NCBI GenBank assembly: GCA_937877295.1
Contig: CALFIV010000061.1
Coordinates: 1 to 12,082, forward strand
DNA length: 12,082 nt
Source of the DNA: an uncultured Clostridia bacterium
Lineage (GTDB): Bacteria > Bacillota_A > Clostridia > Christensenellales > CAG-138
Reading direction: 5' to 3'
This document shows positions 27-12,082 of the stretch, piece by piece; position 1 is the first letter of the stretch; each line of letters begins with the position of its first letter. The notes beneath the pieces are model-generated. The model was not told where the DNA came from. It searched no databases and saw only the letters and a list, made by a program, of their open reading frames with translations. Position numbers and translations under genes: made by a program.

Positions 27-608
27 GGTATAGTCCTTATAGCCGTCCGGAATCCAGTGGTTGTCGATGCAGACCTGCCCGAGCTGCCGTCCGAGATAAT
101 CGCTGATGCGGCGGCAGCGCTTTCCGTGCTCGATCCAGAATGCACGGATCGAAGGATCAAAGCTCGAAAGCGTAAAGTTCGTATCGGCGTTCTTATGGCT
201 GAAATAGGTCGGATTGAAATCCAGCCCGAGTCCATACTCCTTTGCGTAGTCGACCCAGAATGCAAAATGCTTCGGTTCGATGGCGTCGCGGTCCACAAAG
301 GCGCCGAGATTGTCGAGATAGATTGCATGCAGCGCAAGCTTTTTCTTTCCCGGAACAAGCGAGAGCGCTTTCGTGAGATTCCGCATAAATTCATCTTTGT
401 TTTTGGCCTTGCTCGGATCGCTTCCGGTCGCCTGAATGCCGCCGGAAAGCCCTCTTTCGGGGGCTTCGAAACCGGACAGATCGTCGATCTGCCAGCAGTG
501 GATGCTGACGGGAATGCTGTCCAACAGGTCCATGGCGGCGTCTGTATCCACGCCGACTTCCGCAAACACATCCTTTGCGACCTGATATCGTAATTCTGTC
601 TTGCTCAC
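27..608 (-). CDS. rhaA: L-rhamnose isomerase, N-terminal 194 residues (C-terminus cut by contig end)
   Basis: Recognised as L-rhamnose isomerase, the cytoplasmic metal-dependent enzyme converting L-rhamnose to L-rhamnulose; some members also accept other aldoses. The 194 visible residues follow the family almost colinearly from the start: PVSIHCWQ at 33-40, GGIQATG at 56-62, LHAIYL at 93-98, GLDFNPTYFSH at 128-138, and WIPDGYKD at 185-192. The family is about 420 residues, so slightly over half is missing; the metal-binding residues of E. coli RhaA lie in the lost part and cannot be checked. Translation starts at GTG: an in-frame TAA lies three codons upstream, and AAGGTGAT (612-619) gives a well-placed ribosome binding site. 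One visible difference is Ile41 where E. coli has Gly (HCWQGDD). It is the last visible gene of the leftward series, 57 bases after the SDR gene, and probably continues into further rhamnose genes beyond the window. Confidence 0.93.
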
Positions 609-636
609 TTGATCACCTTATCCCTTCATTTTATTA

Positions 637-656
637 TATAGGTATCTATAGGTATC
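637..656 (-). repeat. Perfect 10-bp tandem repeat upstream of rhaA
   Basis: The unit TATAGGTATC (plus strand) occurs twice back to back, at 637-646 and 647-656, in the short gap between the SDR stop and the rhaA start. On the transcribed strand it ends in a TATAAT hexamer (638-633) that lacks a recognisable -35 box at 16-18 bases. Two direct repeats one helical turn apart next to a -10-like element could be an activator site for a rhaA-proximal promoter, or simply a slippage duplication. The repeat itself is certain; the function is not. Confidence 0.6.
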
Positions 657-665
657 GGGCGGTTC

Positions 666-1466
666 CTACCGGGTCAACGGAAATGCTGCGCCGATGCGCG
701 TCCAGGGCCAATCGGTGTTCTGAGCGGCGAACTTGCCGCCGGTGATCTCCACGTCGAATCCGGACATGTAGGAAGCGGCATCCGAGGCCAGAAAGACGAT
801 GGGCTTTGCCAGATCCTCCGGCAGGCCGAGCCGTTTCATCGCGATGTCGCGAACGTATTTCGCGCCGTTCTCTTCGATGCTCTTTCTGGCGATCTCGCTC
901 TGGATCATCCCGGGGATGACGCCGAGAACGCGGATATGATAGGGGGCCAAATCGGCAGCAAGACTCTTGGTAAGGCTGGATACGGCCGCCTTCGAAGCGG
1001 CATAGACAGCGCCCTCGGCATGGGGAATCTTGGCGGCATAGCTGGAGATGTTGATGAACACGCCGCTCTTTTGCTCCATCATGTAGGGGGCGGCGATCCG
1101 GCAGCAGTTCCAAAGCCCTTTGAGGTTGGTTCCCATGACCCTGTCCCAATCCTCTTCGGTGAAATCGAGGAAGTATTTATTTACGGCGTTTCCGGCGTTG
1201 TTGATCCAGATGTCGATCCTTCCGAACCGTTCAACGACGTGCGCGGCAAACGCGCGCATGTCCGCCTCGCAGGAAACGTCGGCGCGCTCGGTGTAAACGA
1301 CGCCTTTCTCCTGCAATTCGTTCTGATACGCCGCGAGCTTTTCTTCGTTTCTTCCGCAGACGGCGATCGATGCGCCTTCGGATAGGAGTTCCCGTCCGAC
1401 GGCAGCGCCGATTCCGCTTGCGCCTCCGGTGATGACCGCAATTTTTCCTTTCAGATTCAGATCCAT
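666..1466 (-). CDS. Short-chain dehydrogenase/reductase (classical SDR)
   Basis: A 266-residue classical SDR, a single Rossmann-fold NAD(P)-dependent oxidoreductase of usual length. Visible motifs are the cofactor loop TGGASGIG at 13-20, NNAG at 89-92, the active-site Asn114 (TNLKG), Ser142, Tyr155 and Lys159 (YAASK), and PGMIQSEIA after the fifth strand, so the catalytic tetrad is complete. The ATG at 1466 is chosen because AAAGGA stands just before it and the TGxxxGIG loop then falls at the normal position. An in-frame ATG at 1502, overlapping the upstream stop as TAATG, would add 12 residues but lacks a ribosome binding site. The gene follows the hydroxyacid dehydrogenase by 35 bases and precedes rhaA by 57. 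Relatives are often labelled 3-oxoacyl-ACP reductase or gluconate 5-dehydrogenase; here a role on a sugar or hydroxyacid intermediate is more likely, but the substrate cannot be read from the sequence. Confidence 0.9.
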   Translation of the reverse strand: MDLNLKGKIAVITGGASGIGAAVGRELLSEGASIAVCGRNEEKLAAYQNELQEKGVVYTERADVSCEADMRAFAAHVVERFGRIDIWINNAGNAVNKYFLDFTEEDWDRVMGTNLKGLWNCCRIAAPYMMEQKSGVFINISSYAAKIPHAEGAVYAASKAAVSSLTKSLAADLAPYHIRVLGVIPGMIQSEIARKSIEENGAKYVRDIAMKRLGLPEDLAKPIVFLASDAASYMSGFDVEITGGKFAAQNTDWPWTRIGAAFPLTR

Positions 1467-1501
1467 ACTACATTCCTTTCTTCCGACAGCGATCTTCCGC
1501 A

Positions 1502-2464
1502 TTACGGATTCAGCCAGTTCTGCGGATCGCGGCCTTCCAGCACGTCGATCACTTCCTGCGCGGTGAAAAGCGCCACGTTGCGGTAAACGTCATAGGTTTC
1601 CGCGCCGGTGTGCGGCGTCGTGACGATGTTCGGGATGCGAAGTATGCGGGCGTCCATCTGCAGCGGTTCCTGCTCGTACACGTCGGTTGCCGCACCGGAT
1701 AGGTGTCCGGACTCGACCGCATCGCACAGCGCTTCGGTATCGACAAGCCTGCCGCGCGCGGTATTGATGAAGTACGCGCCCTCCTTCATGGCGGCAAACG
1801 CTTCGGCGTTCATCGCATGATGGGTTTCGGGCATATCGGGGATGTGGATGCTTACGATATCGCTTTGTCCCAGAACGGTTTCCCAGTCGGTCAGCGTGAC
1901 GTGATAGGCCTCCGCCGCCTGCCGATCGGGATAGAGATCGCAGGCGATGACGTTGAGGTCGAAGCCCATGAGCTTTTTGGCGACCCGTTTTGCGATATCG
2001 CCGAAGCCGTACAGGCCGACCGTCATTCCCGCAAGCTCGCGGCCGACGAACCGTCGCCACTGCCCTTGCTTCAGATCCGCGTTCAGCTGGGGGATCTGTC
2101 GCGCCGCGCTCAGCATAAAGCCGACCGCCAGCTCCGCGACGGCATTCGCGTTCTTGCCCTTGGCGTTCGCGACTTTGATTCCGTACTTTTTGGCGGCTTT
2201 CAAATCGATGTTGTCGACGCCTACGCCGAAGCGGCCGATGGCCTTCAGCTTGGGGGAGATTTTGAAAACCTCCTCGTTCCAATCGTCCAGGCCCGCGATC
2301 ACACCGTCGATATCGCCCATGACCTCCTTGAGTTCCTCAAACGAGAACGCCGGAAAATCCTTATGGTTGATCACCAGCTCACAATCGTTTGCATGGAACA
2401 GCTCCACAGCTTCCCGACAGAGATCCTCGTAGTGGGAAGCGGTAACCAGTATTTTTTTGCTCAT
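1502..2464 (-). CDS. D-isomer-specific 2-hydroxyacid dehydrogenase (phosphoglycerate dehydrogenase-like), copy A
   Basis: A 320-residue NAD-dependent D-2-hydroxyacid dehydrogenase, catalysing 2-oxo acid to D-2-hydroxyacid or the reverse in the cytoplasm. It has the split catalytic domain and the inserted NAD-binding domain: RFGVGVDN at 78-85, nucleotide loop GLYGFG at 150-155 with the acidic Asp176 that favours NAD, Arg237 (NTARG), Glu266 (EQEP) and His285 (TPHTGAE), the usual Arg-Glu-His triad. There is no C-terminal ACT or ASB domain, so it is a short PGDH-like enzyme and not the regulated SerA type. Start is ATG with GAGG nine bases upstream. It lies 29 bases after the transporter ATPase and is a clear paralogue of the enzyme at 6892-7848 (shared CEL.IN, VGDID-like and VIAG blocks), so the two flank the aminotransferase and transporter genes. 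Substrate unknown. Confidence 0.92.
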   Translation of the reverse strand: MSKKILVTASHYEDLCREAVELFHANDCELVINHKDFPAFSFEELKEVMGDIDGVIAGLDDWNEEVFKISPKLKAIGRFGVGVDNIDLKAAKKYGIKVANAKGKNANAVAELAVGFMLSAARQIPQLNADLKQGQWRRFVGRELAGMTVGLYGFGDIAKRVAKKLMGFDLNVIACDLYPDRQAAEAYHVTLTDWETVLGQSDIVSIHIPDMPETHHAMNAEAFAAMKEGAYFINTARGRLVDTEALCDAVESGHLSGAATDVYEQEPLQMDARILRIPNIVTTPHTGAETYDVYRNVALFTAQEVIDVLEGRDPQNWLNP

Positions 2465-2493
2465 ACTGTCACGCCTCTTTCGTTATGCTGAAA

Positions 2494-3240
2494 TCAGAAT
2501 GTTTGAATCTGCTTGATGAATTTCGCAACCGATTCGTTTTTGGGATGGTTGAAAAACTCGTCCGGCGTATTCGTTTCGATAAAGTGTCCGCTTTCCAGGA
2601 AGGAAATGCGGTGGGCTGCTTCTCTTGCAAACCCCATTTCGTGTGTGACGACAATCATGCTGCGCTTTTCGTTCGCCAGCTCCTCCATGATGTCGATGAC
2701 CTCGCCGACCATTTCCGGATCGAGCGCGCTCGTCGGCTCATCGAAGAGGATCATATCGGGGAACATGTTCAGTGCGCGCGCGATCGCAACGCGCTGCTGC
2801 TGCCCGCCGGAGAGCATGCTCGGCTTTGCATTCATGCGGTCGCCCAATCCGACCTTTTCGAGGAACTGCTTGCCGGTTTCCTCCGATTCCTTCTTGCTCT
2901 TGTGCAGGGATTGGATCGGCCCGAAGGTGACGTTCTCGAGCGCGGTCATGTTGGGGAACAGGTTGAAGTTCTGAAAAACCATCGCGATCCGCTGCCGGAC
3001 GCGCTTGATGTTGTGCTTCGTGACTTCGTTTCCTTCAAACAGAATTTTGCCGCTGTCGATATGCTCCAGACGGTTGATGCAGCGGATCAGCGTGCTCTTG
3101 CCGGCGCCGCTTCTGCCGCAGATCACGTGCGTCTCGCCCTGGAAAAAACTGAAATTGAAGTGATCCAGAACAACGATTTTGCCGTTGTTGAAGGACTTGC
3201 AGGCGTCTTGAAACTCGACTAATACTTTTTGTTCTTCCAT
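2494..3240 (-). CDS. Polar amino-acid-type ABC transporter ATPase
   Basis: A 248-residue ATPase of the GlnQ/HisP family, which energises uptake of polar amino acids and related solutes at the inner face of the membrane. All nucleotide-binding motifs are intact: Walker A GRSGAGKST at 42-50, Q-loop Gln90 (MVFQNFNLFPNMTALEN context, typical of this family), signature LSGGQQQR at 143-150, Walker B MILFDEP at 163-169, and switch His200 (VVTHEM). Length is normal and no extra C-terminal regulatory domain is present. The ribosome binding site GAGG precedes the ATG. The gene sits 22 bases after the second permease and 29 before the dehydrogenase, completing a binding protein, permease, permease, ATPase set. 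Family membership is sure; the transported compound is not. Confidence 0.96.
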   Translation of the reverse strand: MEEQKVLVEFQDACKSFNNGKIVVLDHFNFSFFQGETHVICGRSGAGKSTLIRCINRLEHIDSGKILFEGNEVTKHNIKRVRQRIAMVFQNFNLFPNMTALENVTFGPIQSLHKSKKESEETGKQFLEKVGLGDRMNAKPSMLSGGQQQRVAIARALNMFPDMILFDEPTSALDPEMVGEVIDIMEELANEKRSMIVVTHEMGFAREAAHRISFLESGHFIETNTPDEFFNHPKNESVAKFIKQIQTF

Positions 3241-3262
3241 ATTATCCTCACCTGACGATTGT

Positions 3263-3919
3263 TTAATAATAACTGCTTAAACTACGGATCGGGCCTTTGT
3301 GGTCGTTCTTCTTTTCGACGCGACGGCCGATGAGCTCGATCAGTGCGCACAACACGTAGTAGAATATGCCGATCAGCAGATAGCCCACGATCGGATTGAA
3401 CGTCAATGCCATCAGCTGACGGCCCATCCACATGATATCCATAACGCCCACGACGTAGACGATCGTCGTATCCTTGACGAGCAGAACGTACTGCCCGCAA
3501 AGCATCGGCACCATCGGTTTGATGATCTGCGGAATATAGACTTTCCGCATGATCGTCCAGTAACCGACGCCGAGCGATTCGCCGGCCATCATCTGGCCCT
3601 TGGGGATCGCCTCAAAACAGCCGCGCACGATGTCGCCCACATAGGCGGCGTGGTACAGGGAAAGGCCTAAAAATGCCGTGAAGAAGGCTGAGCTGAGATT
3701 GATGTTGTAATACAGAAGCCGCAGGATAACGATCGCCGGGATGCCGCGCATAAAGGTTTTGTATACAAACAGAATGATGTTCAATCCCGGAATCTTTTTA
3801 TACATCAGAATACCGAGTATCAGGCCCGCAACGAGCGTTGTCAGAACGCAGAGCGGAACGAGCTCGGCGGTGATGACAAGGCCGGAGGACATGAATTTGA
3901 TCATTTGAATCAGTGACAT
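3263..3919 (-). CDS. Polar amino-acid-type ABC transporter permease 2 (divergent EAA loop)
   Basis: A 218-residue membrane protein of the HisM/GlnP family, with several hydrophobic segments (about 13-38, 44-70, 78-95, 138-163, 178-198) and a charged C-terminal tail. FMRGIPAIVIL at 57-67 matches the family's FRGTPLLVQL block, and SLYHAAYVGDIVRG at 87-100 matches the conserved region before the coupling loop. The coupling loop GQMMAGESLG at 108-117 departs from the usual GQxEAAxSLG: Met111 stands where Glu is expected. It starts three bases after the stop of permease 1, with AAGGAG seven bases before the ATG, so the two are translated as a tight pair and probably form a heterodimeric channel. 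Family call is firm; the substrate is unknown. Confidence 0.93.
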   Translation of the reverse strand: MSLIQMIKFMSSGLVITAELVPLCVLTTLVAGLILGILMYKKIPGLNIILFVYKTFMRGIPAIVILRLLYYNINLSSAFFTAFLGLSLYHAAYVGDIVRGCFEAIPKGQMMAGESLGVGYWTIMRKVYIPQIIKPMVPMLCGQYVLLVKDTTIVYVVGVMDIMWMGRQLMALTFNPIVGYLLIGIFYYVLCALIELIGRRVEKKNDHKGPIRSLSSYY

Positions 3920-3922
3920 TGC

Positions 3923-4570
3923 TTATCTCCTTACCATTGCTTTCTTTTCCAATACTCTGCCGATCTGCGTGATCAGCAGGAAGATGGCGATGTAGATAAA
4001 GGCAATCACCCATATAGATACGGAATTGAGATACTTCTCATAGAACGCGCTGCCCGCACGCATGAGGTCCAGGACCATGATGAGGGAAAACAGCGAGGTG
4101 TCCTTTATGATTACGGAAGATTGCCCCGTAAGGATCGGGATCGAATTGCGAAACGCGAGAGGGAAGATCAGCCTGTTCACGACCTGCGTCTTGCTGAGCC
4201 CAAGGCTGACGGCGGCTTCCACCTCTCCGATCGGAACATTTTTGATGGAACCTCGAATGATTTCCGCGACAAAGGCGCTTTCGTTCAACGTGATCGCGAC
4301 CACGCCGCAAACCAGCGGCGGCAGGACGACCTTGATCATCGGAAGTCCGTAGAACAGAAAGAACAGGATGACCAGCAGCGGCGTGTTTCGGAAAACAGAG
4401 ATATAGACCCGCATCACTGCGGAAAGAAACTTGTTGTTATAGGCCACCAGGATTGCAACCAGTGAGCCGACCAATACGGAGGTCACGATCGCGATCAGCG
4501 ATGAGAGCAGCGTTACTTTCAAGCCCTCCAGAAGGGTCGGCAACCAACTCAGAAACTGTATTTGACTCAT
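3923..4570 (-). CDS. Polar amino-acid-type ABC transporter permease 1
   Basis: A 215-residue inner-membrane permease of the HisM/GlnP family. RNTPLLVILFFLFYGLP at 61-77 is the family hallmark, followed by NESAFVAEIIRG at 96-107 and a canonical ATPase-coupling loop GEVEAAVSLGLS at 115-126 (Glu118, Ala119, Ala120, Gly124). Hydrophobic segments lie near 18-43, 55-77, 83-102, 144-170 and 185-205. Translation is set to the ATG at 4570, which GGGAGG (4580-4575) precedes by four bases; an upstream in-frame TTG at 4582 would overlap that binding site and add only four residues. It is separated from its binding-protein gene by 188 bases containing strong hairpins, and nearly touches permease 2 downstream. 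Confidence 0.95.
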   Translation of the reverse strand: MSQIQFLSWLPTLLEGLKVTLLSSLIAIVTSVLVGSLVAILVAYNNKFLSAVMRVYISVFRNTPLLVILFFLFYGLPMIKVVLPPLVCGVVAITLNESAFVAEIIRGSIKNVPIGEVEAAVSLGLSKTQVVNRLIFPLAFRNSIPILTGQSSVIIKDTSLFSLIMVLDLMRAGSAFYEKYLNSVSIWVIAFIYIAIFLLITQIGRVLEKKAMVRR

Positions 4571-4654
4571 AGTACCTCCCAAAGAGTCCTGTACCGGCTT
4601 GAAGTGTTTTGCTCGTTTCCGAGGATTCGGTTCAGTTCAGACTCAATCAAGATT

Positions 4655-4670
4655 TGTTCCGTTCGGAACA
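4655..4670. repeat. 16-bp inverted repeat between binding protein and permease genes
   Basis: TGTTCCG and CGGAACA flank a 2-base centre, giving a near-perfect 16-bp dyad in the 188-base gap 4571-4758. It could be a protein-binding dyad or a weak hairpin in the message. A further small hairpin (4612-4623, minus strand CTCG-GAAA-CGAG with a GNRA loop) lies closer to the permease. No promoter or known riboswitch was recognised in this gap. Confidence 0.5.
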
Positions 4671-4687
4671 TGAAACAGTAGGTGTTG

Positions 4688-4731
4688 AAAACGGGCGGCC
4701 ACAGACGTCTTCATCTGCAGCCGTCCGTTTT
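4688..4731 (-). terminator. Strong intercistronic hairpin after the binding-protein gene (partial terminator or mRNA stabiliser)
   Basis: Two 18-base arms (4714-4731 and 4688-4705) pair around an 8-base loop with one A-C mismatch and two G-T wobbles, so a GC-rich core is flanked by AAAA and TTTT. On the minus strand it follows the binding-protein stop by 27 bases. The U run after the stem is only the four bases in the arm itself, so full termination is doubtful. Such hairpins commonly keep binding-protein mRNA more abundant than permease mRNA. The structure is read directly; its role is inferred. Confidence 0.65.
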
Positions 4732-4758
4732 TCCTTGCGTTACGCGGGAAAGCAGAGC

Positions 4759-5601
4759 TTACGCACCGTATTCGCCCATGAACGGGGTCCAGGGAGCGCC
4801 GTACCACTTTTCACAGATGTCGCTGTAGGTGCCGTCCATCTTGATGATCTTCAGGTAGTTGTTGAACGCATCGCGGAGCGTGTAGGAGCCGAGGTCCATC
4901 TTGAAACCGAACGCAACGGTGTCGACGGAGAGGGGCTCTGGGAGGATCGTCAGGGTGTCGTCATCCTTCATCATGACAGAGGAAGTGTTGGTGTCGGTGA
5001 GGTAAGCATCCACACGACCGGCCTTCAGAGCTGCGATTGCGTCTGCGGAGGAACCGATCTCTTCAACCTTGGCGTCGGGCCAAAGCTCTCTTGCGATCTC
5101 AACATACACGCCGCCGGACGGTCCGCAGACGGTGCGGGACGGATCGTTGAGCTCGTCGATGCTGGTCAGGCCGCTGCTCTTCAGAACCAATGCGATACCG
5201 TTGGAATGCGTGACCGGCTCGCTGAAGAGGACGGTTGCAGAACGCTTCGCGGTTCTGGAGATGTTGGCGCTTGCCATGTCGGCTTTGCCGTTGTTGACGG
5301 CTTCAAAGAGCTCGGAGAACTCCATAGGCGCGAGCTCGAGCTTGACGCCGATCGACTCGCAGAAACCGTTCATGATGTCGATGTTGAAGCCGATGTATTC
5401 GCCGGTGGCCGGATCGGCAAAGGTGAAGGGCTCGGAACCGACTTCGATCGCTGCGACGAGCTTGCCCTTGGCAAGAACATCTGCGAGTCGATCGGTCGTT
5501 CCGGCGGCAGTAGAGGTCCCGCCCGAGCAGGCGATAACCGTCAGAGCCAGCATTGCCAGCGTCAGTGACAGCGCAACGATTTTCTTCAGACTGAGTTTCA
5601 T
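4759..5601 (-). CDS. Extracellular solute-binding lipoprotein, family 3 (polar amino-acid type)
   Basis: A 280-residue substrate-binding protein of the polar amino-acid ABC family. It opens with MKLSLKK, a hydrophobic stretch, and a lipobox VIAC with Cys25 as the lipid-anchored residue, so the mature protein is tethered outside the membrane. The mature part carries the family-3 landmarks: GKLVAAIEVGSEPF near 46-59, GFNIDIMNGFCESIG near 71-85 (usual GFDVD), MANISRT-like ASANISRTAKRS near 110-121, FSEPV, and GRVDAYLTD near 195-203. The family-3 arginine expected to grip the carboxylate is represented by Arg115 or Arg119. AAGGAGG lies ten bases before the ATG. It follows the aminotransferase by 73 bases and leads the transporter genes. 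Family 3 proteins usually bind amino acids or small opine-like compounds; the exact ligand cannot be predicted here. Confidence 0.95.
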   Translation of the reverse strand: MKLSLKKIVALSLTLAMLALTVIACSGGTSTAAGTTDRLADVLAKGKLVAAIEVGSEPFTFADPATGEYIGFNIDIMNGFCESIGVKLELAPMEFSELFEAVNNGKADMASANISRTAKRSATVLFSEPVTHSNGIALVLKSSGLTSIDELNDPSRTVCGPSGGVYVEIARELWPDAKVEEIGSSADAIAALKAGRVDAYLTDTNTSSVMMKDDDTLTILPEPLSVDTVAFGFKMDLGSYTLRDAFNNYLKIIKMDGTYSDICEKWYGAPWTPFMGEYGA

Positions 5602-5674: not shown

Positions 5675-6835
5675 TTAAAGCGCCGAAACATAATCGCGGA
5701 TTCTGCCGATGCCTTCCGTGATCGCTTCATCGGAAGCTGCATAGGTCAATCGGAGCAGGCCGTCGCCGCCGGGGCCGAAGCCGGAGCACGGAACGGTGAT
5801 TACATGCTTCTTCTGCAGGATGTCCATGGCGAGATCCTCCGTGTTCATGCTCGTTTGCTTCATCAGCTCTTTGATGTTCATCATCACGTAGAATGCGCCT
5901 TGCGGAGTCCTGCACGACAAGCCGGGAATATCGTTGATCAGCTTGCAGATCAGGTTGCGTCTGCGGAGATACTGGAGGCGCATGTTCTCGATCTCCTTCT
6001 GACAGTAGCGCAGCGCATACGCAGCCGAGCGCTGGAGCGGTTCGGACAGGCAAGAAACGCCGTTTTCATGCATTTTCTTCATGCCGATAAAAATCTCCGG
6101 TGTGGTGATCGCGTAGCCCAATCGCCAGCCCGGCATGGCCAGCATCTTGGAGAAGCCGTTGATATAAACCGTCCGTTCCCGCATCCCTTCAAACTCGGTA
6201 ATGCTGGTGTACGGCTCATCCGTGTAAATCAGGCGGCTATAGATCTCATCGCTGATGACGAACAGATCATGTTTGCGGATGATCTCAGCGAGCCTCTTCA
6301 TGGTCTCACGATCGATCACCGCACCGGTTGGATTGGAGGGCGAATTGATGATGATGCAGCGGGTCTTTTCGGTGATGGCCGCTTCAACGTCCTTGGGGTC
6401 GACGACAAAATTGTTTTCTTCCTTCGCGATGACGGGCTTGCAGATTGCGCCGCACATCTGGATCTGGCAGAAATATGGCTGCCATGCCGGGGAAACAAGG
6501 ATGACCTCCTCGCCGGGGTTCACAAGGGTGAACAGCGCAAGCTCGATTGCTTCGGTCGCGCCGCAGGTAATCAGGATCTCCTTGTCCGGGTCCGCATGCA
6601 GGTTTTTGTGATATTCCGCAACGGCGTCGCGCAGGTCTTTTACGCCGGCATTGTCCGTATAATGTGTTTTGCCTTCCTTGAGCCACTTGACCGCATCCTC
6701 AATGACCGGTTTCGGCGCGATGAAGTTCGGTTCGCCGATCGAAAAGCTGATGACGTCTTCCATTCCCGCCGCCGCGTTGAAGAACTTGCGGATGATCGAT
6801 CCGCTTGTTGCCTGAACCAGTTTAGACAATTCCAT
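5675..6835 (-). CDS. Pyridoxal-phosphate aminotransferase, class I (fold type I)
   Basis: A 386-residue aminotransferase of the aspartate aminotransferase/PatA group, moving an amino group between an amino acid and a 2-oxo acid in the cytoplasm. The expected cofactor residues are present: SIGEPNF at 32-38, GATEAIELAL at 92-101, Asn168 (NSPSNPTG), Asp196 and Tyr199 (SDEIYS), Schiff-base Lys230 in GFSKMLAMPGWRLGY, and the carboxylate-binding Arg362 (LRLTYA). Length is normal for the class. AAGGAG seven bases before the ATG fixes the start. It lies between a 2-hydroxyacid dehydrogenase (56 bases before) and the amino-acid-type binding protein (73 bases after), which suggests that it acts on the imported compound or on its oxo acid. 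Substrate range in this family is broad, so no gene symbol is given. Confidence 0.94.
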   Translation of the reverse strand: MELSKLVQATSGSIIRKFFNAAAGMEDVISFSIGEPNFIAPKPVIEDAVKWLKEGKTHYTDNAGVKDLRDAVAEYHKNLHADPDKEILITCGATEAIELALFTLVNPGEEVILVSPAWQPYFCQIQMCGAICKPVIAKEENNFVVDPKDVEAAITEKTRCIIINSPSNPTGAVIDRETMKRLAEIIRKHDLFVISDEIYSRLIYTDEPYTSITEFEGMRERTVYINGFSKMLAMPGWRLGYAITTPEIFIGMKKMHENGVSCLSEPLQRSAAYALRYCQKEIENMRLQYLRRRNLICKLINDIPGLSCRTPQGAFYVMMNIKELMKQTSMNTEDLAMDILQKKHVITVPCSGFGPGGDGLLRLTYAASDEAITEGIGRIRDYVSAL

Positions 6836-6891: not shown

Positions 6892-7848
6892 TCACACCAG
6901 AACGTTCTTCGGCGTTTCGCCTTTGAGCATGGTCACAATCGACTCCGCAGTATGGATACCCATCTCACGATAGTTTTCGTAGGTTTCGGCTGCCGTATGC
7001 GGCGTGCAGATGTATTGATCGAGCGTGAACAGCGGATTGTTGGGATCCACCGGTTCCGTTTCGAAGACGTCCGTTCCGTAGCCTGCGACCTTGCCCGAAA
7101 CCAGCGCGTCGTACATGTCGCTTTCCTTGACGATGGGGCCGCGCGCGGTATTGACGATATAGACGCCGTCCTTCATCTTGGCAAAGAGATCACGGTTGAA
7201 CATGCCGCGCGTTTCCGGCGTGCAGGGCACATGGATCGAGAGGATGCTGCTGTTAGCAATGACCTCTTCGAACGAGCAGAGCGTGACGCCGAGCCGTTCC
7301 GCTTCGCTCCTGTTCGGCGCCAGATCGTATGCGAGCAGCTTTGCCCCGAACGGGATCAGCTTTTCGGCGACAAGACGCGCCACCGCGCCGAACCCGACAA
7401 GACCCACTGTTTGTCCCTTGATCTCATGCGTGACATAGCGGACCCAGCCGCCCTGCTTGGTCGAGCGGTCCAGGGATGGAATGTTGCGCAGCAGGCTCAG
7501 CAGCAGACCGATTGCCTGTTCCGAAACGGCGTTGCTGTTGATCCCGGGCGAATAATTCGCGCGAATCCCGAACTGGCGGATATCGTCGAGATTCAGCGTG
7601 TCGATGCCGACGCCGAAGCGGGAGATATACTTCAGCTTCTTCGCGTACGGGAAGATCCGGGCGTCCCAGAGATCGGATCCGGCAATCACCGCGTCGATAT
7701 CGCCGACAATTTCCTTCTGCTCCTCAAAGGTCAGCGGACGTCCGCGGCGATTGATGATCAGCTCACATCCGTACGCCTCAAGGATCCTGAGCCCTTCCGT
7801 GCACCGGTCTTCGTAACACGGAGCCGTAATCAATACTTTCGGTTTCAT
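6892..7848 (-). CDS. D-isomer-specific 2-hydroxyacid dehydrogenase (phosphoglycerate dehydrogenase-like), copy B
   Basis: A 318-residue NAD-dependent D-2-hydroxyacid dehydrogenase with the full catalytic set: RFGVGID at 77-83, nucleotide loop GLVGFG at 149-154, Asp175 at the end of the second NAD strand, Arg236 (NTARG), Glu265 (ETEP) and His284 (TPHTAAE). Like its paralogue at 1502-2464 it lacks regulatory C-terminal domains. GGAG eight bases upstream supports the ATG. The gene lies 25 bases after the aldolase and 56 before the aminotransferase, so the three may act in sequence: oxidation of a D-2-hydroxyacid to an oxo acid followed by transamination, or the reverse. The two copies are clearly related but well diverged across their length, arguing for separate substrates or opposite steps and against recent duplication. 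Confidence 0.92.
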   Translation of the reverse strand: MKPKVLITAPCYEDRCTEGLRILEAYGCELIINRRGRPLTFEEQKEIVGDIDAVIAGSDLWDARIFPYAKKLKYISRFGVGIDTLNLDDIRQFGIRANYSPGINSNAVSEQAIGLLLSLLRNIPSLDRSTKQGGWVRYVTHEIKGQTVGLVGFGAVARLVAEKLIPFGAKLLAYDLAPNRSEAERLGVTLCSFEEVIANSSILSIHVPCTPETRGMFNRDLFAKMKDGVYIVNTARGPIVKESDMYDALVSGKVAGYGTDVFETEPVDPNNPLFTLDQYICTPHTAAETYENYREMGIHTAESIVTMLKGETPKNVLV

Positions 7849-7873
7849 AAGCAGTTCTCCGGTTTCCGTCCTG

Positions 7874-8779
7874 TCAGATCAAAACGTTCTTATAATCCAG
7901 CTCATCGAGCTGCCGAAGCAGGGAAGCCTCCTCCTCGGGAGCAAGCTTTTCCATCGGCTTGCGCATGTTCGTGCAGGAGAGCACTCCCTCGCGCTGCAAA
8001 ATGACCTTGTACGCCGCGATGTTGTTGATCGCGCACATAACCGCATTGACGACGTTCGTTCTGCGCTGGATTTGGGTTGCCAGTTCGAAATCCCTCGCGT
8101 CGATCGCTTCCCGCAGCGCCTTATAGTGCTCTCTTGCGCACATGGCATTGCCGGAGACGGTGCCTTTGCCGCCGACCGCGGAGAAAGCCGCATACAGATG
8201 GTCCGGACCGGCGAGCACGTCGAAGCGGCCGTCGTTTACCAGCATCAGCTCCTGCATGCGCGTCATGTCCGCGAAGCTGTATTTGACGCCGACCACGTTC
8301 GGGCACTTTTTGGCAACTTCCTCGCAGACATACCGGTTCAGGTCGTTGACGGCATTCTGCTTGATCGCGTACATATACACCGGAAAATCGGCGGGCACGC
8401 TGTTCGCGACAGCGACATAGAAATCGATCAGACCCTTATCGCTCAGCTTGTAAAACGCAGGGGTGACCACGCCGATCCCGTCCGCGCCGATCTGAACGGC
8501 GTGCCGGGCAAGCTCGATGGTATCCGCCTGACTCCACGCGCCCACATGGACGAAGACGGGGATCCGATCGTGCGCATAGGCGACGACCGTTTCCGCGATC
8601 AGCTTCCGCTCTTCCAATGACAGATACATCATTTCACCGGTTGTTCCGCAGGGATAGAGGCAATCCATGCCGCCGTCGATGCAGTAATCGCAAAGACGCT
8701 TCAGGGATTCCAGATCGATTTCATCCTCTTCCGTGAACGGAGTAACCATCGGGATGACAATACCATGCATTCGTTTCAT
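7874..8779 (-). CDS. Dihydrodipicolinate synthase/N-acetylneuraminate lyase family aldolase
   Basis: A 301-residue TIM-barrel class I aldolase. The pyruvate-binding GTTGE motif is at 45-49, a catalytic Tyr at 135 or 137 in PVYMYA, and the Schiff-base Lys166 in GVKYSF; VLAGPDHLYAA near 188-198 replaces the usual SGDD block, and GGKGTVSGNA near 203-212 matches the family. The family condenses pyruvate with, or splits it from, aldehydes: dihydrodipicolinate synthase, N-acetylneuraminate lyase, 2-keto-3-deoxy-sugar-acid aldolases. Its place in a catabolic cluster and away from lysine genes argues against a lysine-biosynthesis role; I favour cleavage of a 4-hydroxy-2-oxo acid. AGGAGG six bases before the ATG fixes the start. 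It follows lacI by 54 bases. Substrate remains open, so it is not called dapA or nanA. Confidence 0.9.
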   Translation of the reverse strand: MKRMHGIVIPMVTPFTEEDEIDLESLKRLCDYCIDGGMDCLYPCGTTGEMMYLSLEERKLIAETVVAYAHDRIPVFVHVGAWSQADTIELARHAVQIGADGIGVVTPAFYKLSDKGLIDFYVAVANSVPADFPVYMYAIKQNAVNDLNRYVCEEVAKKCPNVVGVKYSFADMTRMQELMLVNDGRFDVLAGPDHLYAAFSAVGGKGTVSGNAMCAREHYKALREAIDARDFELATQIQRRTNVVNAVMCAINNIAAYKVILQREGVLSCTNMRKPMEKLAPEEEASLLRQLDELDYKNVLI

Positions 8780-8813
8780 AAAAAACCTCCTGTTATTGAT
8801 TGATGTCCGTTAT

Positions 8814-8831
8814 GAGAACCGGTCGGTTTTC
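8814..8831. repeat. Imperfect 18-bp dyad between lacI and the aldolase gene
   Basis: On the minus strand GAAAACCG and CGGTTCTC flank a 2-base centre, with seven of eight pairs matching. It starts just past the lacI stop. It could be an extra operator or a minor hairpin; no promoter is evident beside it and it does not share the AAAAACGTTTTT core. Confidence 0.35.
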
Positions 8832-8833
8832 AA

Positions 8834-9904
8834 TCACCAATCGGTCAGAATCCAATCCTCCTGTGCAGAGGCAACGGTGGATTGCCGGACGACCAGACGT
8901 CCCTCCATCAGAATCTGCTGCGGTTCCTCAGCGACATTTTCGTTTTCGATACGCTTGATCAAAAGCCTTGCCGCCTCGATTCCGGCATGCCGCTTTTTGA
9001 TATGAATGGAGGAAAGCGGCGGATCGATGATGCTCGAAACAAAGACGTCGTCATAGCCGATAATCCTGATATCGTCCGGGATGACCTTCCCCAGTTCCTT
9101 TGCTGCCTTTACGGCGCCGACGGCCATCTGATCGTTCCCGCAGAAAATGCCGTCCAGATCCGGGAAGCGGCGCATCAGCTCTTTCATGGCAAGATAGCCG
9201 CCCTGATGGGAGTAGTTGCCGCTGACGATCATGTCGTCGGTAACTTCGATGCCCGCAGACTCCATCTCGTCGCGGTATCCCTTGATTCGCTCGCCGACGA
9301 TCCCAATGATATCGCTCGGTCCGGAGATGTGGCAGATCTTTCTGCATCCGCAATCCAGCAGATGCTTCATGGCGAGACGGGCGTTCTCGTATCCGTTGAA
9401 ATACACGGAATCGATCCCGTGCGCCGCGAAATTGCGCTCGATGCTGACGATCGGCGTCCGCTTGAACTTGTTGGCGATCTTTAAGAGCCTTTCGCAGTGT
9501 TCGCCGCTCTTTTCATTGCTGATCGCCGAGACGAAGATGATGCCGTCCACGCGGTTGTTCACAAACTGGTTGAACAGCTCCAGTTCATAGTCGGCATTCA
9601 CGAACGAATCCTTCCCGCCGGAAGTGATGATCGTATAGCCCATCGGGGAGGCGATCTCATCAATGCCCTTGATGACGAACGGATAAAAGACGCCGTACAT
9701 GTCGCCGACGATCACGCCGATGATCTTTGAGTTCGGCGCTTTCATGTTTCTGGCGACGGGATCGGGCTCATATGCCAGCTCTTTTGCGACCTTCAGAACC
9801 TTCTGCCGCAGCTCTTCGCTGACCGGACGGCGATTGTTGAGTACGTTCGAAACCGTTGAGATTGAAACGCCCGCTTTGGATGCAACTTCTTTGATACCAA
9901 TCAT
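8834..9904 (-). CDS. LacI-family transcriptional regulator
   Basis: A 356-residue LacI/GalR repressor. Residues 1-60 form the DNA-binding domain: IKEVASKAGVSISTVSNVLN at 4-23 is the helix-turn-helix, followed by the hinge helix DPVARNM, where Met replaces the usual leucine after AR-x. From about residue 60 a periplasmic-binding-protein-like domain (IIGVIVGD, DGIIFVSA, DGIFCGNDQMAVGA, IIGYDD) should bind a small effector, normally a sugar or sugar phosphate. AGG seven bases before the ATG fits as binding site. It is the second gene of the leftward operon, 19 bases after the PMI-like gene, so it is most likely autoregulated through the two AAAAACGTTTTT palindromes at 11290-11333. The assignment of those sites to this protein is inference from location and from the family's CG-centred palindromic operators. 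Confidence 0.96.
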   Translation of the reverse strand: MIGIKEVASKAGVSISTVSNVLNNRRPVSEELRQKVLKVAKELAYEPDPVARNMKAPNSKIIGVIVGDMYGVFYPFVIKGIDEIASPMGYTIITSGGKDSFVNADYELELFNQFVNNRVDGIIFVSAISNEKSGEHCERLLKIANKFKRTPIVSIERNFAAHGIDSVYFNGYENARLAMKHLLDCGCRKICHISGPSDIIGIVGERIKGYRDEMESAGIEVTDDMIVSGNYSHQGGYLAMKELMRRFPDLDGIFCGNDQMAVGAVKAAKELGKVIPDDIRIIGYDDVFVSSIIDPPLSSIHIKKRHAGIEAARLLIKRIENENVAEEPQQILMEGRLVVRQSTVASAQEDWILTDW

Positions 9905-9923
9905 ACTTTGACCTGTTCCTCAC

Positions 9924-11231
9924 TTAAAAATCTTCTTTCTGTCCGGGGATTCCGGGACAGTTCGGACCGAAATGCTTCAAAAGTACCAGCGGCTCCACCT
10001 TGCTGAGATTCTTGATCACGACGCCCTCGGTCGCGCGCTTTTCCGATACGAAAAACTCGTCGGAGCTCTGCTGCCCGAAACGAAGGAGCGTGGGCGCTTC
10101 GGCGTCAAACACGCCGAACATTCCGTGACCCTGCACAAAGATGCAGCCGTAAGCTGCGCCGTCGCGGATGCATACGGTCTGTCCCGGCTGTACGGTCAGC
10201 TCCTTTGCAGCGATATACGGGTTGCCGTAGCAGATCCATTTCTGCGTGTACGCGTCGTTCCGTTCCTCGACGATCGGCTCACGGAAATAATGCTTCTTGT
10301 AATGCGGATCGATGTTCTTTTCCCAATCCAGAAGGCTGAACACATAGTCGATATCGTTTTTGTGATCGGGAGGACATTCCTCGTCGAGCATTTCCGGCGG
10401 ATAGATTTCGCCGGACACGATGTTTTCGAAAACGGAATTGACGTCGGAGTTCCACTGCGGCTCATAGGTCAGCACCGATGCGGGCGCGTGGATCACTCCG
10501 GCGGGGGTATACCAGCCCGTTCCGAGCTGCACGCGGTAAGCCCTTGACAATTCGGTGATCCGCGTATCGTCGTCCGCAAACCGGCGGATCCGCGCTTTGA
10601 TCTCCTCCGGATCCACATCCGGGTCAAAGCCGAAGTACGTATAGTCCGCTTCGCCGAAATGATTGTTCAGCTGCTTCGGGAAATAGTAGTTCTCGGGTTT
10701 TCCGAGCTTCCCGACGCGCGCCGCCGCTTCAAAGGTCAGGTGGAGATGATGGAAAAGGGGATTCAGGTTGTCAAAAAACTTGGAGTAGATCGGCCAGCCG
10801 TTATACCGTTCCATCAGCTCGCTGCCGACCAGCTCTGCGCCGAGCGTCTTTACGGCGTCCCGCAGCGTGAACTTGAGATCGGAGTCGTAATCCGTACACA
10901 CATAGCTCAGACCTTCGTCGGCCTTCGCCGTCGGGCCGTTCTGTGCGGCGATCGTGGAAGCAAACCAGCGTTCGGTAATCGAGCCGCGCTCCATGCCGAA
11001 TGCAAAGTAATCGTCCGGATGAAGCTTCAGCCGATGACCGGCCTTGCCGAACCGTCTGGGAACAAAGGCAGGGAACAATCTGAAAATGCCGTCCCCCTTT
11101 TCAAAGGTGCTGCGGATCACGGTCCGATCGGAGGTGGCGTCTTTTACGACAAGGTTGCCGCTCTCTTTCGCATCCGATAGGGCCTTGTCCAACCGTTCGC
11201 CGGCAAGCAGGATGATCTCTTTTTCCGTCAT
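9924..11231 (-). CDS. Class I mannose-6-phosphate-isomerase-like cupin protein
   Basis: A 435-residue protein with the pattern of type I phosphomannose isomerases, zinc cupins that interconvert aldose and ketose phosphates. Visible marks are ITERWFASTIAAQNG near 85-98, the metal-binding HHLH at 161-164 with GKPENYYF near 177-184 supplying Glu180, PAGVIHA at 243-249 with His248, and EPQWNSD at 257-263, the counterpart of the E-x-QQNSD block. It is longer than typical short PMIs (about 315 residues) and diverges strongly outside these motifs, so mannose-6-phosphate is not assured and another sugar may be the substrate. Start is placed at the ATG at 11231, where GGAGGTG (11244-11238) is correctly spaced; an in-frame GTG at 11240 lies inside that binding site. 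It is the first gene after the leftward promoter, 19 bases before lacI. Confidence 0.78.
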   Translation of the reverse strand: MTEKEIILLAGERLDKALSDAKESGNLVVKDATSDRTVIRSTFEKGDGIFRLFPAFVPRRFGKAGHRLKLHPDDYFAFGMERGSITERWFASTIAAQNGPTAKADEGLSYVCTDYDSDLKFTLRDAVKTLGAELVGSELMERYNGWPIYSKFFDNLNPLFHHLHLTFEAAARVGKLGKPENYYFPKQLNNHFGEADYTYFGFDPDVDPEEIKARIRRFADDDTRITELSRAYRVQLGTGWYTPAGVIHAPASVLTYEPQWNSDVNSVFENIVSGEIYPPEMLDEECPPDHKNDIDYVFSLLDWEKNIDPHYKKHYFREPIVEERNDAYTQKWICYGNPYIAAKELTVQPGQTVCIRDGAAYGCIFVQGHGMFGVFDAEAPTLLRFGQQSSDEFFVSEKRATEGVVIKNLSKVEPLVLLKHFGPNCPGIPGQKEDF

Positions 11232-11289
11232 GTATGACACCTCCGTTATTTATTCGATTTTTGAACCGATCAAACCGTCTTTTTGGCAG

Positions 11290-11301
11290 AAAAACGTTTT
11301 T
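11290..11301. promoter_or_regulatory. LacI-type operator, promoter-distal copy (start-site proximal)
   Basis: A perfect 12-bp palindrome AAAAACGTTTTT with the central CG typical of LacI-family operators. It begins about one base after the predicted transcription start of the leftward operon, a position expected to block initiation. It is part of a 15-base direct repeat (CAGAAAAACGTTTTT) shared with the copy at 11322-11333. Confidence 0.82.
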
Positions 11302-11309
11302 ACAAGAAG

Positions 11310-11338
11310 AATATATACCAGAAAAACGTTTTTGTCAA
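11310..11338 (-). promoter_or_regulatory. Sigma-A-type promoter of the leftward operon
   Basis: On the minus strand TTGACA (11338-11333) and TATATT (11315-11310) are separated by exactly 17 bases, a near-consensus housekeeping promoter. An A/T-rich block upstream (11341-11370) resembles an UP element. Initiation is predicted near 11303, giving a leader of about 72 bases before the PMI-like ATG. Confidence 0.9.
11322..11333. promoter_or_regulatory. LacI-type operator, copy in the promoter spacer
   Basis: The second AAAAACGTTTTT palindrome lies between the -35 and -10 boxes and shares one base with the -35. Its centre is 32 bp from the other copy, about three helical turns, so both face the same side of the DNA and two repressor dimers could bind cooperatively. 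Occupancy would exclude RNA polymerase. Confidence 0.82.
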
Positions 11339-11406
11339 GGATAATCATAAATTATTTTTTAATTTTTATTCACTCGCTCGGCGCGCCGCCTTTTGCATAA
11401 CCGAAT

Positions 11407-11425
11407 CGCCGGACGCGATCCGGTG
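11407..11425. repeat. Inverted repeat in the GC-rich part of the divergent region
   Basis: CGCCGGA and TCCGGTG pair (one G-T) around a 5-base loop. It is one of several CCGG-centred dyads between the two promoters. There is no T run, so it is not an obvious terminator. Confidence 0.4.
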
Positions 11426-11462
11426 TTCAAAACCCTGTAAACCCGCTGCGGCGTACGTGCAT

Positions 11463-11489
11463 CCGGACACATGCGCGCGAGCTGTCCGG
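11463..11489. repeat. Inverted repeat CCGGACA/TGTCCGG upstream of the rightward promoter
   Basis: Two perfect 7-base arms enclose a 13-base loop. The right arm overlaps CTGTCCGGGCAG (11482-11493), which resembles TTGTCGGGACAG (11524-11535) inside the rightward promoter spacer at 9 of 12 positions, 42 bp away. The pair could be binding sites for a second regulator. Confidence 0.4.
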
Positions 11490-11516
11490 GCAGGGGATGA
11501 ACCTGAAAAAACGCTA

Positions 11517-11545
11517 TTGTAATTTGTCGGGACAGAAGCTATAAT
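11517..11545 (+). promoter_or_regulatory. Promoter of the rightward epimerase gene
   Basis: TTGTAA (11517-11522) and TATAAT (11540-11545) stand 17 bases apart on the plus strand: a perfect -10 and a 4-of-6 -35. Initiation is predicted near 11552, leaving a leader of about 70 bases. A small dyad TGTC-GG-GACA (11525-11534) lies in the spacer. Confidence 0.8.
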
Positions 11546-11562
11546 GAATAAAACGCTGCCGA

Positions 11563-11581
11563 CCGGGAACGTGTTTCCCGG
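11563..11581 (+). promoter_or_regulatory. Leader hairpin or operator dyad before the epimerase gene
   Basis: CCGGGAA and TTCCCGG form a perfect 7-bp stem with a 5-base loop, about 11 bases after the predicted start and 20 bases before the ribosome binding site. With no T run it is not a terminator. It may stabilise the message or be an operator. Confidence 0.5.
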
Positions 11582-11620
11582 AGACGCACACACTGCTGCG
11601 GGAAGGAGTCGGATATCGGA

Positions 11621-12082
11621 ATGGCACATCAATCGGCGACGGCAGGCTATCGGTTGGGCCTGTATGAAAAGGCGATGCCGGAGATCGGCTGGAAGGCGAA
11701 GCTCTCCATGGCGCGCGACGCGGGATATGATTTCGTGGAGATCAGCATCGACGCCAGCGAGGAAAAGATCTCTCGGGTATACGCGAATCCGGCGGAGCGC
11801 AGGGCGCTGGCGGATCTTTGCCGTGAACAGCGAATGCCGATCCGTACGCTCAATGCGTCGGCGCTGACGAAATACGCGCTCGGCGATCCCGACCGGGAGA
11901 TCAGCGGACGCGGACTCGAGATCGCGCTGCGTGCAGTGGAGTTCGCCGACGATCTCGGCATACGGCTTGTGATGATCCCCGGCTACGACGTCTATTTCAA
12001 ACCGCATTCGGAGGGAACGGAAGCGCTGTTTCTCGAGAACATCCGCATTCTGACCGATCACGCGGCAAAAGTGGGTGTACAG
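11621..12082 (+). CDS. L-ribulose/L-xylulose-5-phosphate 3-epimerase (UlaE/SgbU family), N-terminal 154 residues
   Basis: The frame is open to the right edge and matches the UlaE/SgbU family of TIM-barrel sugar-phosphate 3-epimerases, cytoplasmic enzymes that link L-xylulose-5-phosphate and L-ribulose-5-phosphate. Aligned landmarks are LGLYEKAMP at 12-20, GYDFVEISIDAS at 35-46, GRGLEIALRAVEFADDLGIR at 97-115, and GYDVYF at 121-126. The family is about 285 residues, so nearly half is missing, including the metal-binding acidic and histidine residues of the C-terminal half. The ATG has GGAAGGAG upstream at a somewhat long 12-base spacing. It is transcribed away from the leftward operon from its own promoter. 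The substrate could be another ketose (phosphate); the missing half prevents a test. Confidence 0.85.
   Translation, partial: MAHQSATAGYRLGLYEKAMPEIGWKAKLSMARDAGYDFVEISIDASEEKISRVYANPAERRALADLCREQRMPIRTLNASALTKYALGDPDREISGRGLEIALRAVEFADDLGIRLVMIPGYDVYFKPHSEGTEALFLENIRILTDHAAKVGVQ

What the first reader, a model, noticed from the sequence alone, without database searches (positions are those of the whole stretch)
27..12082. A LacI-controlled locus joining sugar isomerases to an amino-acid importer, aminotransferase and aldolase
One leftward gene series contains a PMI-like isomerase, LacI repressor, DHDPS-family aldolase, two D-2-hydroxyacid dehydrogenases, a class I aminotransferase, a full polar-amino-acid-type ABC importer, an SDR and rhamnose isomerase, with a UlaE-type epimerase divergent. 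I know of no standard pathway with this composition. LacI proteins usually sense sugars, family-3 binding proteins usually bind amino acids. One reading: a hydroxy-amino acid or a sugar-amino acid conjugate is imported, transaminated, cleaved to pyruvate plus an aldehyde, and the aldehyde or sugar part is handled by the isomerases and dehydrogenases. The alternative is two unrelated modules placed side by side.
Basis: partly seen in the sequence, partly recalled or inferred. Interest (0 to 1): 0.75.

Follow-up and report, generated by a model that had tools for sequence, protein, structure and literature searches.

The report
Predicted operon degrading sugar-like amino acids
In an uncultured gut bacterium, one stretch of genes under a sugar-type repressor appears to import an unusual amino acid, turn it into pyruvate and a sugar, and feed that sugar into ordinary metabolism; the substrate itself is still unknown.

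Summary
In detail: eleven complete genes plus a cut rhaA lie on the minus strand, with a cut ulaE divergent. A sister MAG (L001, 92-99% protein identity) repeats the order and adds araD, an ASRT-family gene and an FGGY kinase, completing a possible pentose route. Two perfect LacI-type operators overlap the one strong promoter.

Comparison favours one pathway over two unrelated modules. Close relatives of the rare importer were found in three other genomes; in all three an aminotransferase and a DHDPS-family aldolase are linked to it, and two also carry sugar kinase genes. Orthologues of the aldolase are linked to at least three distinct aminotransferase lineages, to D-2-hydroxyacid dehydrogenases and to sugar isomerases. 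The aldolase lacks the DapA arginine. Best reading: a gamma-hydroxy alpha-amino acid is imported, transaminated, and cleaved to pyruvate plus an aldose.

Against this: in 4 of 4 other PMI-orthologue loci the sugar genes stand without these genes, and the aldolase shares two residues with 4-hydroxy-2-oxoglutarate aldolase, so a hydroxyglutamate/glyoxylate route is a real rival. Substrate and product (L-lyxose?) are inference; no activity was tested.

The parts
3..608 (-). rhaA, L-rhamnose-isomerase family, 3' end cut
   Evidence: PF06134 3.7e-79; complete 407 aa copy in L001 16640-17863
666..1466 (-). SDR oxidoreductase; TGGASGIG, NISS and YAASK motifs
   Evidence: PF00106 2e-58; motifs; relatives near the DHDPS orthologue in L002, L003, L025, L026, L056
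1502..2464 (-). D-2-hydroxyacid dehydrogenase b (HADHb), catalytic R/E/H motifs kept
   Evidence: PF02826 1.6e-60; motifs
2494..3240 (-). ABC importer ATPase, polar amino acid type
   Evidence: PF00005; best NCBIfam GlnQ, below cut-off
3263..3919 (-). ABC importer permease B
   Evidence: PF00528; TIGR01726 over cut-off
3923..4582 (-). ABC importer permease A
   Evidence: PF00528; TIGR01726 over cut-off
4759..5601 (-). family-3 substrate-binding lipoprotein of a rare subfamily; S115, R120 and D203 kept at amino-acid-binding positions
   Evidence: PF00497; 30 relatives at E<=1e-20; alignments
5675..6835 (-). class I aminotransferase
   Evidence: PF00155 2.6e-67; no cut-off reached among the 25 NCBIfam matches shown
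6892..7848 (-). D-2-hydroxyacid dehydrogenase a (HADHa), 45% identical to HADHb
   Evidence: PF02826 2.3e-57; identity and motifs
7874..8779 (-). DHDPS/NAL-family class I pyruvate aldolase: Y137, K166, N142 in place of DapA Arg138, GPDH block
   Evidence: PF00701, below the dapA cut-off; residues
8834..9904 (-). LacI-family repressor
   Evidence: PF00356, PF13377; orthologues 47-57% identical in three other PMI loci
9924..11240 (-). PMI-like cupin, putative sugar isomerase without Pfam or NCBIfam family
   Evidence: cupin-type fold matches, model only moderate; orthologues next to an FGGY kinase in 4 genomes
11310..11338 (-). strong sigma-70-like promoter (TTGACA-17-TATATT, 11 of 12) before PMI
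11290..11301 (.). LacI-type operator AAAAACGTTTTT, downstream copy
   Evidence: conserved in L001
11322..11333 (.). LacI-type operator AAAAACGTTTTT inside the promoter spacer
   Evidence: conserved in L001
11507..11518 (.). degenerate operator-like AAAAACGCTATT overlapping the divergent promoter
   Evidence: 2 mismatches; inference
11517..11545 (+). promoter-like site before the UlaE-type gene (TTGTAA-17-TATAAT)
   Evidence: 10 of 12
11621..12082 (+). UlaE-type L-ribulose-5-phosphate 3-epimerase, cut; followed by araD in L001
   Evidence: PF01261, NF009689 5.6e-40; AraD over cut-off in L001

Best explanation
One LacI-controlled catabolic operon. The importer takes up an alpha-amino acid that carries a gamma-hydroxyl and a sugar-like tail. 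The aminotransferase (for a 2-hydroxy analogue, the HADHs) turns it into a 4-hydroxy-2-oxo acid. The DHDPS-family enzyme cleaves this to pyruvate plus an aldose. RhaA and/or the PMI-like isomerase convert the aldose to a ketose, the downstream FGGY kinase phosphorylates it, and UlaE plus AraD bring it to D-xylulose 5-phosphate. The best guess for the aldose is a pentose such as L-lyxose. The sugar, not the amino acid, is probably the LacI inducer. Shown by computation: gene content, order, conserved neighbourhoods, operators, catalytic and binding residues. Inferred: every reaction, the substrate, the sugar, and the roles of SDR and HADHs.
For: (1) Close relatives of the importer in three further genomes (L094, L123, L124) are each linked to an aminotransferase and a DHDPS-family aldolase; L124 adds a ribokinase-type kinase, and L094 a PfkB kinase, a KdsD-like SIS isomerase and an RbsD/FucU protein. 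(2) Among 59 aldolase-orthologue loci (L001 included), 6 have the amino-acid ABC set and an AT within 7 kb, 23 a HADH, 15 a same-strand sugar isomerase or kinase. (3) ATs linked to aldolases form at least three class I lineages 31-41% apart (L049's AT not compared), plus a class V enzyme in L094, so the link was made repeatedly. (4) 5 of 28 full-length FucI genes in 59 genomes lie within 7 kb of the aldolase; about 0.15 expected by my estimate; about three independent events on the tree. (5) Not DapA: R138 is N142, while Y137 and K166 are kept. (6) The same operator core in four PMI-orthologue loci, and identical recognition-helix letters in the three LacI orthologues there; in MAG G001 a 15-base operator pattern with up to 1 mismatch gives 5 sites, of which only these two keep the CG centre. 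(7) In L001 the aldolase-importer genes sit between PMI/LacI and RhaA/FGGY on one strand, and G001 holds one weak relative (35%) of the sugar permease of those operons against 16-47 relatives in four other genomes. (8) The binding protein keeps the Arg and Asp of amino-acid binders (role recalled).
Against: In 4 of 4 other PMI-orthologue loci the sugar genes stand without aldolase, AT or amino-acid importer in the 18-20 kb fetched. None of the fetched stretches of L123, L124 and L094 (10-20 kb) has PMI, RhaA or UlaE. L123 and L094 carry two DHDPS-family genes each, and one of each scores over the dapA cut-off. In L094 an opposite-strand gene separates the aldolases from the importer. N142 and S168 match human HOG aldolase. 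No natural 2-amino-3-deoxy-octonic acid is known to me. Operon structure is inferred from spacing. In an even draw of genomes only 2 of 5 SIS-orthologue loci had a DHDPS-family gene nearby. RhaA's next best match, 73%, lies near an FGGY-type gene that looks like a rhamnulokinase by eye, not a pentose set.
Confidence: 0.5

Rival explanations
1. Hydroxyglutamate route: the importer brings in 4-hydroxyglutamate, the aminotransferase makes 4-hydroxy-2-oxoglutarate, the aldolase gives pyruvate and glyoxylate, and the HADHs reduce glyoxylate. The pentose genes only share the promoter.
For: Human HOG aldolase has Asn in place of DapA Arg138 and Ser two after the lysine (PMC3188589 passages); the window aldolase has N142 and S168. 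HADHs score with PGDH and glyoxylate reductase models, below cut-offs. L094 has a class V aminotransferase related, below cut-offs, to an aspartate-glyoxylate aminotransferase model among others.
Against: HOG aldolase Asn78 is T47 here. D193 (60 of 60 rows) and H194 (55 of 60) lie where NAL binds sugar hydroxyls. It does not explain the recurrent FucI, PfkB, SIS, RbsD and RhaA neighbours or LacI control.
Confidence: 0.2
2. Two unrelated modules side by side: a LacI/PMI/FGGY/UlaE/AraD pentose set and an amino-acid set that happened to be inserted into it.
For: The sugar set stands with a ribose-type ABC importer in L086, L087 and L088, and without an adjacent one in L089. HADH, SDR and aldolase form their own set with TRAP importers in L002, L003 and L056.
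Against: The amino-acid set lies inside the sugar set on one strand with short gaps and behind LacI operators. Other importer and aldolase loci have other sugar genes.
Confidence: 0.17
3. A sugar acid of KDO type is imported directly by the family-3 protein and cleaved to pyruvate and a pentose; aminotransferase and HADHs merely turn pyruvate into alanine and D-lactate.
For: NAL enzymes can make KDO from D-arabinose (PMC4016182 passages). FucI and a BNR_2 sialidase-like gene lie near the aldolase in L045 and L055 (BNR_2 scanned in L045 only). An alanine racemase family gene lies between importer and AT in L049 and L052.
Against: The binding protein keeps amino-acid-binding Arg and Asp, and 4 of 4 loci found with a window-type importer (L001, L094, L123, L124) have an aminotransferase.
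Confidence: 0.1

Closest known systems
N-acetylneuraminate lyase / KDO-type pyruvate aldolase of the DHDPS superfamily
   Same: Schiff-base lysine, catalytic tyrosine, GxxGE block, GPD sugar block as in group 3 NAL
   Different: GPDH instead of GPDE, below the NAL cut-offs; found with aminotransferases and HADHs rather than ManNAc genes
Hydroxyproline/4-hydroxyglutamate degradation (AspAT plus HOG aldolase plus glyoxylate reductase)
   Same: aminotransferase feeding a DHDPS-family aldolase, with a 2-hydroxyacid dehydrogenase nearby; N and S at two HOG aldolase positions
   Different: no hydroxyproline genes in the window; sugar isomerases, pentose epimerases and LacI control
L-lyxose/L-xylulose route (RhaA, xylulokinase, UlaE, UlaF/AraD), recalled from E. 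coli
   Same: RhaA, FGGY kinase, UlaE and AraD families present in L001
   Different: no pentose or ascorbate importer or UlaD seen in the locus; kinase specificity untested
LacI-RbsABC-FucU-PMI-FGGY operons of Lachnospiraceae and kin (L086-L088)
   Same: identical operator core, PMI and FGGY; orthologous LacI in L086 and L088; UlaE and AraD too in L087
   Different: they have a ribose-type ABC importer; here an amino-acid-type importer, AT and aldolase take that place

Membership tests
DapA (4-hydroxy-tetrahydrodipicolinate synthase) | Arg138 for aspartate semialdehyde | tested here: not met
   N142 in the window; N in 57 of 60 rows, C in 2 and H in 1
DapA (4-hydroxy-tetrahydrodipicolinate synthase) | NCBIfam dapA cut-off 206.15 bits | tested here: not met
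   173.7 bits
N-acetylneuraminate lyase | catalytic Tyr and Lys | tested here: met
   Y137 and K166 in 60 of 60 rows
N-acetylneuraminate lyase | Glu after GPD or GYD that binds O8/O9 of Neu5Ac | tested here: not met
   H194 (H in 55 of 60 rows, Q 2, Y 1, E 1, D 1); role from passages of PMC4016182
4-hydroxy-2-oxoglutarate aldolase | Asn at the Arg138 position and Ser at Lys+2 | tested here: met
   N142 and S168 against passages of PMC3188589
4-hydroxy-2-oxoglutarate aldolase | Asn78 beside the proton-relay Ser | tested here: not met
   T47 in 60 of 60 rows; position mapped by me through E. coli DHDPS Thr44/Thr45
Polar amino acid uptake (family 3) ABC importer | SBP_bac_3, two permeases, ATPase, and Arg and Asp for the amino acid | tested here: met
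   roles of R120 and D203 recalled from LAO-type proteins
L-lyxose/L-xylulose catabolism | RhaA, FGGY kinase, UlaE and AraD together | tested here: met
   families met in the window or L001; the window is cut at both ends
L-lyxose/L-xylulose catabolism | enzyme activity on L-lyxose and L-xylulose | not testable with these tools
   no assay possible
Amadori (fructosyl-amino acid) utilisation | fructosamine kinase and SIS deglycase in the locus | tested here: not met
   none among the window proteins and the L001 AraD, ASRT and FGGY proteins scanned; L001 genes at 614-4005 and the rest of G001 were not scanned

The most novel reading that the evidence does not exclude
Gut Clostridia possess an undescribed pathway for sugar-tailed alpha-amino acids (2-amino-2,3-dideoxy-aldonic acids, C8 if the product is a pentose): amino-acid import, transamination, NAL-like retro-aldol cleavage to pyruvate and a free aldose, and use of the aldose under a sugar-sensing LacI. 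This implies an unrecognised class of natural substrate in the gut or rumen.
Probability: 0.3. Interest if true: 0.82.

Novelty: new variant of a known kind. Interest (0 to 1): 0.6.

Why it matters
If true, it joins amino-acid and sugar catabolism through one aldolase and points to substrates in the gut or rumen that are not being looked for, as far as I know. It gives testable functions to a rare binding-protein family, to a large cupin isomerase family without Pfam or NCBIfam match, and to a recurring set of genes whose named relatives are called 'dihydrodipicolinate synthase family protein'.

Tried and rejected
DapA function: rejected for the window enzyme by the missing Arg138 and the sub-cut-off score. 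Reversal of lysine biosynthesis (diaminopimelate in, DAP aminotransferase, DHDPS backwards) was considered and set aside: wrong aldolase residue, and it would not need the sugar genes. Amadori or other conjugates: no deglycase or hydrolase among the proteins scanned. KduD/KDG-type route: KduD was not among the 25 of 232 NCBIfam hits shown for the SDR. AlphaFold model of the PMI-like protein: mean pLDDT 69.9, residues 62-89 and 244-285 poorly modelled; fold hits are generic cupins with a small PMI on top, so it is used only as a hint. Order-level and class-level searches for the binding protein found no further genome (396 and 391 genomes); in the rows shown at most 6 candidates per genome were scored, so these negatives are weak. 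Equal 'longest contig' lengths of some PMI, aldolase and binding-protein homologues (6910 and 19743) were noticed as hints of linkage but not used, because chance matches are likely. Literature searches for this pathway gave nothing direct; the library lacks most subscription papers.

Rows dropped: of 71 loci, the counts use 59 (L001-L060 without L058). L058, L061, L062 and L071 are partial matches; L063-L070 are distant (31-33%). L062, with SDR, HADH and TRAP genes, is among those dropped. The tree has 22 of 60 inner branches with starred support. The first gene lists came from a crude longest-ORF caller that missed or mis-stranded genes; later lists use a codon-usage caller (on) or tblastn.
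Full report
WHAT IS THERE. The window looks like a metagenome contig; no whole genome is held for it. Its minus strand carries, in transcription order, a PMI-like gene, lacI, a DHDPS-family gene, D-2-hydroxyacid dehydrogenase a, a class I aminotransferase, a family-3 binding protein, two permeases, an ATPase, D-2-hydroxyacid dehydrogenase b, an SDR and a cut rhaA; a UlaE-type gene diverges. Gaps are 19, 54, 25, 56, 73, 176, 3, 22, 29, 35 and 57 bp (the SDR start at 1466 is my choice). The best promoter-like site (11 of 12) lies just before the PMI-like gene; over the whole window 8 sites were found against 6.3 expected, so weaker internal sites are chance-level.

THE SISTER LOCUS. A scan of species genomes with an alignment of the aldolase gave 71 loci. 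L001, a reindeer MAG, repeats the whole window in order at 92-99% protein identity and shows what the window cuts off: araD beyond ulaE (over the NCBIfam cut-off), and after rhaA an ASRT-family gene (PF07100) and an FGGY kinase, itself cut. RhaA, FGGY, UlaE and AraD together fit a route from an aldopentose such as L-lyxose to D-xylulose 5-phosphate (family functions recalled).

THE SUGAR HALF. PMI-like orthologues (at least 78% identical) were found in four of the other 33 genomes searched. Around them (L086-L089) stand an FGGY kinase (4 of 4), a LacI gene (3 of 4, not L087), a ribose-type ABC importer (3 of 4; L089 has only another RbsA-like set several genes away), an RbsD/FucU-type gene (3 of 4; L086 confirmed by Pfam, the others by eye) and, in Blautia schinkii (L087), UlaE and AraD. 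None of the four has the aldolase, aminotransferase or amino-acid importer in the 18-20 kb fetched. So the sugar half is a known sort of sugar operon, usually with its own sugar importer. MAG G001 holds only one relative of that permease (35% identical) against 16-47 in the four comparison genomes; the MAG is small (1.8 Mb) and may be incomplete.

THE OPERATORS. Two copies of AAAAACGTTTTT lie at 11290-11301 and 11322-11333, the second inside the promoter spacer; both are conserved in L001. The same 12-mer lies in the regulatory regions of L086-L089. The LacI proteins there (L086, L088, L089) are 47-57% identical and share the recognition-helix letters SISTVSNVLN. In G001 a 15-base operator pattern with up to one mismatch gives 5 sites, of which only these two keep the CG centre. 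A degenerate site (2 mismatches) overlaps the divergent promoter. L049 and L048 also carry one such site near LacI genes; the L049 LacI has a different helix, so that match may be coincidental. Most characterised LacI regulators sense sugars (start of the abstract of PMC4052901 in the listing).

THE AMINO-ACID HALF. The binding protein is rare: 30 proteins at E<=1e-20, from 3612 word-sharing candidates in 5.8 billion. It keeps Arg and Asp at the positions aligned with amino-acid binders (their role is recalled). Close relatives of the whole importer were found in three genomes: L094 (1 of the 4 genomes that matched among 103 of the family of G001; the others were G001 itself and two of another lineage, L049 and L095), L123 (1 of 296 of the family of G029) and L124 (1 of 299 of the family of G003). 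In each, the importer is linked to an aminotransferase and a DHDPS-family gene. L123: aldolase, AT (45%), second aldolase, SBP (48%), permeases (61-65%), and an ATPase cut by the contig end. L124: aldolase, SBP (35%), permeases (52-60%), ATPase (67%), AT (41%), ribokinase-type kinase. L094: two DHDPS-family genes, an opposite-strand gene, then the importer, then a class V aminotransferase; a PfkB kinase, a KdsD-like SIS isomerase, an RbsD/FucU protein, an ADH (by eye) and HADHs are close by. The aldolases are 21-31% identical to the window's in L123 and L124 and under 35% in L094, so the roles are kept while the proteins change. L095 shows AT, a family-3 importer of another lineage, alanine racemase and a DHDPS-family gene.

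THE ALDOLASE. In 59 full-length orthologue loci, L001 included, neighbours within 7 kb include: HADH 23 (18 on the same strand); aminotransferase 9 (one of them, L038, weak); complete amino-acid ABC set 6; FucI 5; PfkB 8; SIS 2; DhaK 6; TRAP DctM 16. A tree (22 of 60 inner branches starred) puts aminotransferase loci in several separate places and the window and L001 in a starred group of 8 rows, where 5 of the other 6 have a HADH nearby. The linked class I aminotransferases compared form at least three lineages 31-41% apart. FucI control: 59 genomes hold 28 full-length FucI genes (over 230 bits); 5 lie within 7 kb of the aldolase, about 0.15 expected by my estimate; three of the five belong to one clade of the tree, so about three independent events. 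SIS control: in an even draw of 391 genomes of the class, 5 had the SIS orthologue, and 2 of the 5 had a DHDPS-family gene nearby.

RESIDUES. Aligned to solved structures, the aldolase keeps Tyr137 and Lys166, but Asn142 stands at DapA Arg138. PMC3188589 and PMC5380162 (passages only) state that Arg138 binds the second substrate of DHDPS, that human HOG aldolase has Asn there, and that its Ser198, two after the lysine, and Asn78 help bind substrate. The window has the Asn and the Ser but Thr47 in place of Asn78. Group 3 NALs have a GPDE sugar block whose Glu binds O8/O9 of Neu5Ac, and one of them makes KDO from D-arabinose (PMC4016182, passages); the window has GPDH. A smaller sugar-like acid therefore fits, but hydroxy-oxoglutarate is not excluded.

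MECHANISM AND DOUBT. I favour one pathway: import, transamination, retro-aldol cleavage to pyruvate and aldose, isomerisation, phosphorylation, epimerisation. The HADHs may serve a 2-hydroxy analogue or reduce pyruvate or glyoxylate; the SDR's role is unknown. The substrate, the sugar and all activities are inferred. The strongest points against are the stand-alone sugar operons elsewhere and the HOG-aldolase-like residues.

Noticed in passing
window 1-26 and RhaA C-terminus: Contig end reads RSEERRVG / PYTTLFRS, which I recall as translated sequencing-adapter peptide; RhaA homology stops there and L001 diverges at the same point.
   Followed up: partly
window 9924-11240: The PMI-like cupin has 6577 homologues at E<=1e-10 among the 7998 candidates scored yet the window copy matches no Pfam or NCBIfam model; a large unnamed sugar-isomerase-like family, with two paralogues in one cluster in L086 and L087.
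   Followed up: partly
L001 17920-18285 and L113 5354-5701: An ASRT-family (PF07100 in L001) gene sits directly beside rhaA in two genomes; its role in sugar operons is unexplained.
   Followed up: no
L045 14645-16015 and L055 10464-11810: A BNR_2 sialidase-like protein near FucI, the aldolase and a sugar ABC importer: a candidate KDO-type release and degradation locus.
   Followed up: no
L002, L004, L008, L028, L034, L053: DhaK-type kinase genes near the aldolase, including a Pasteurellaceae genome (L028), suggesting triose or tetrose products in some relatives.
   Followed up: partly
L049 7613-8764 and L052 7601-8743: Alanine racemase family gene between importer and aminotransferase; it may racemise a D-amino-acid substrate.
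   Followed up: no
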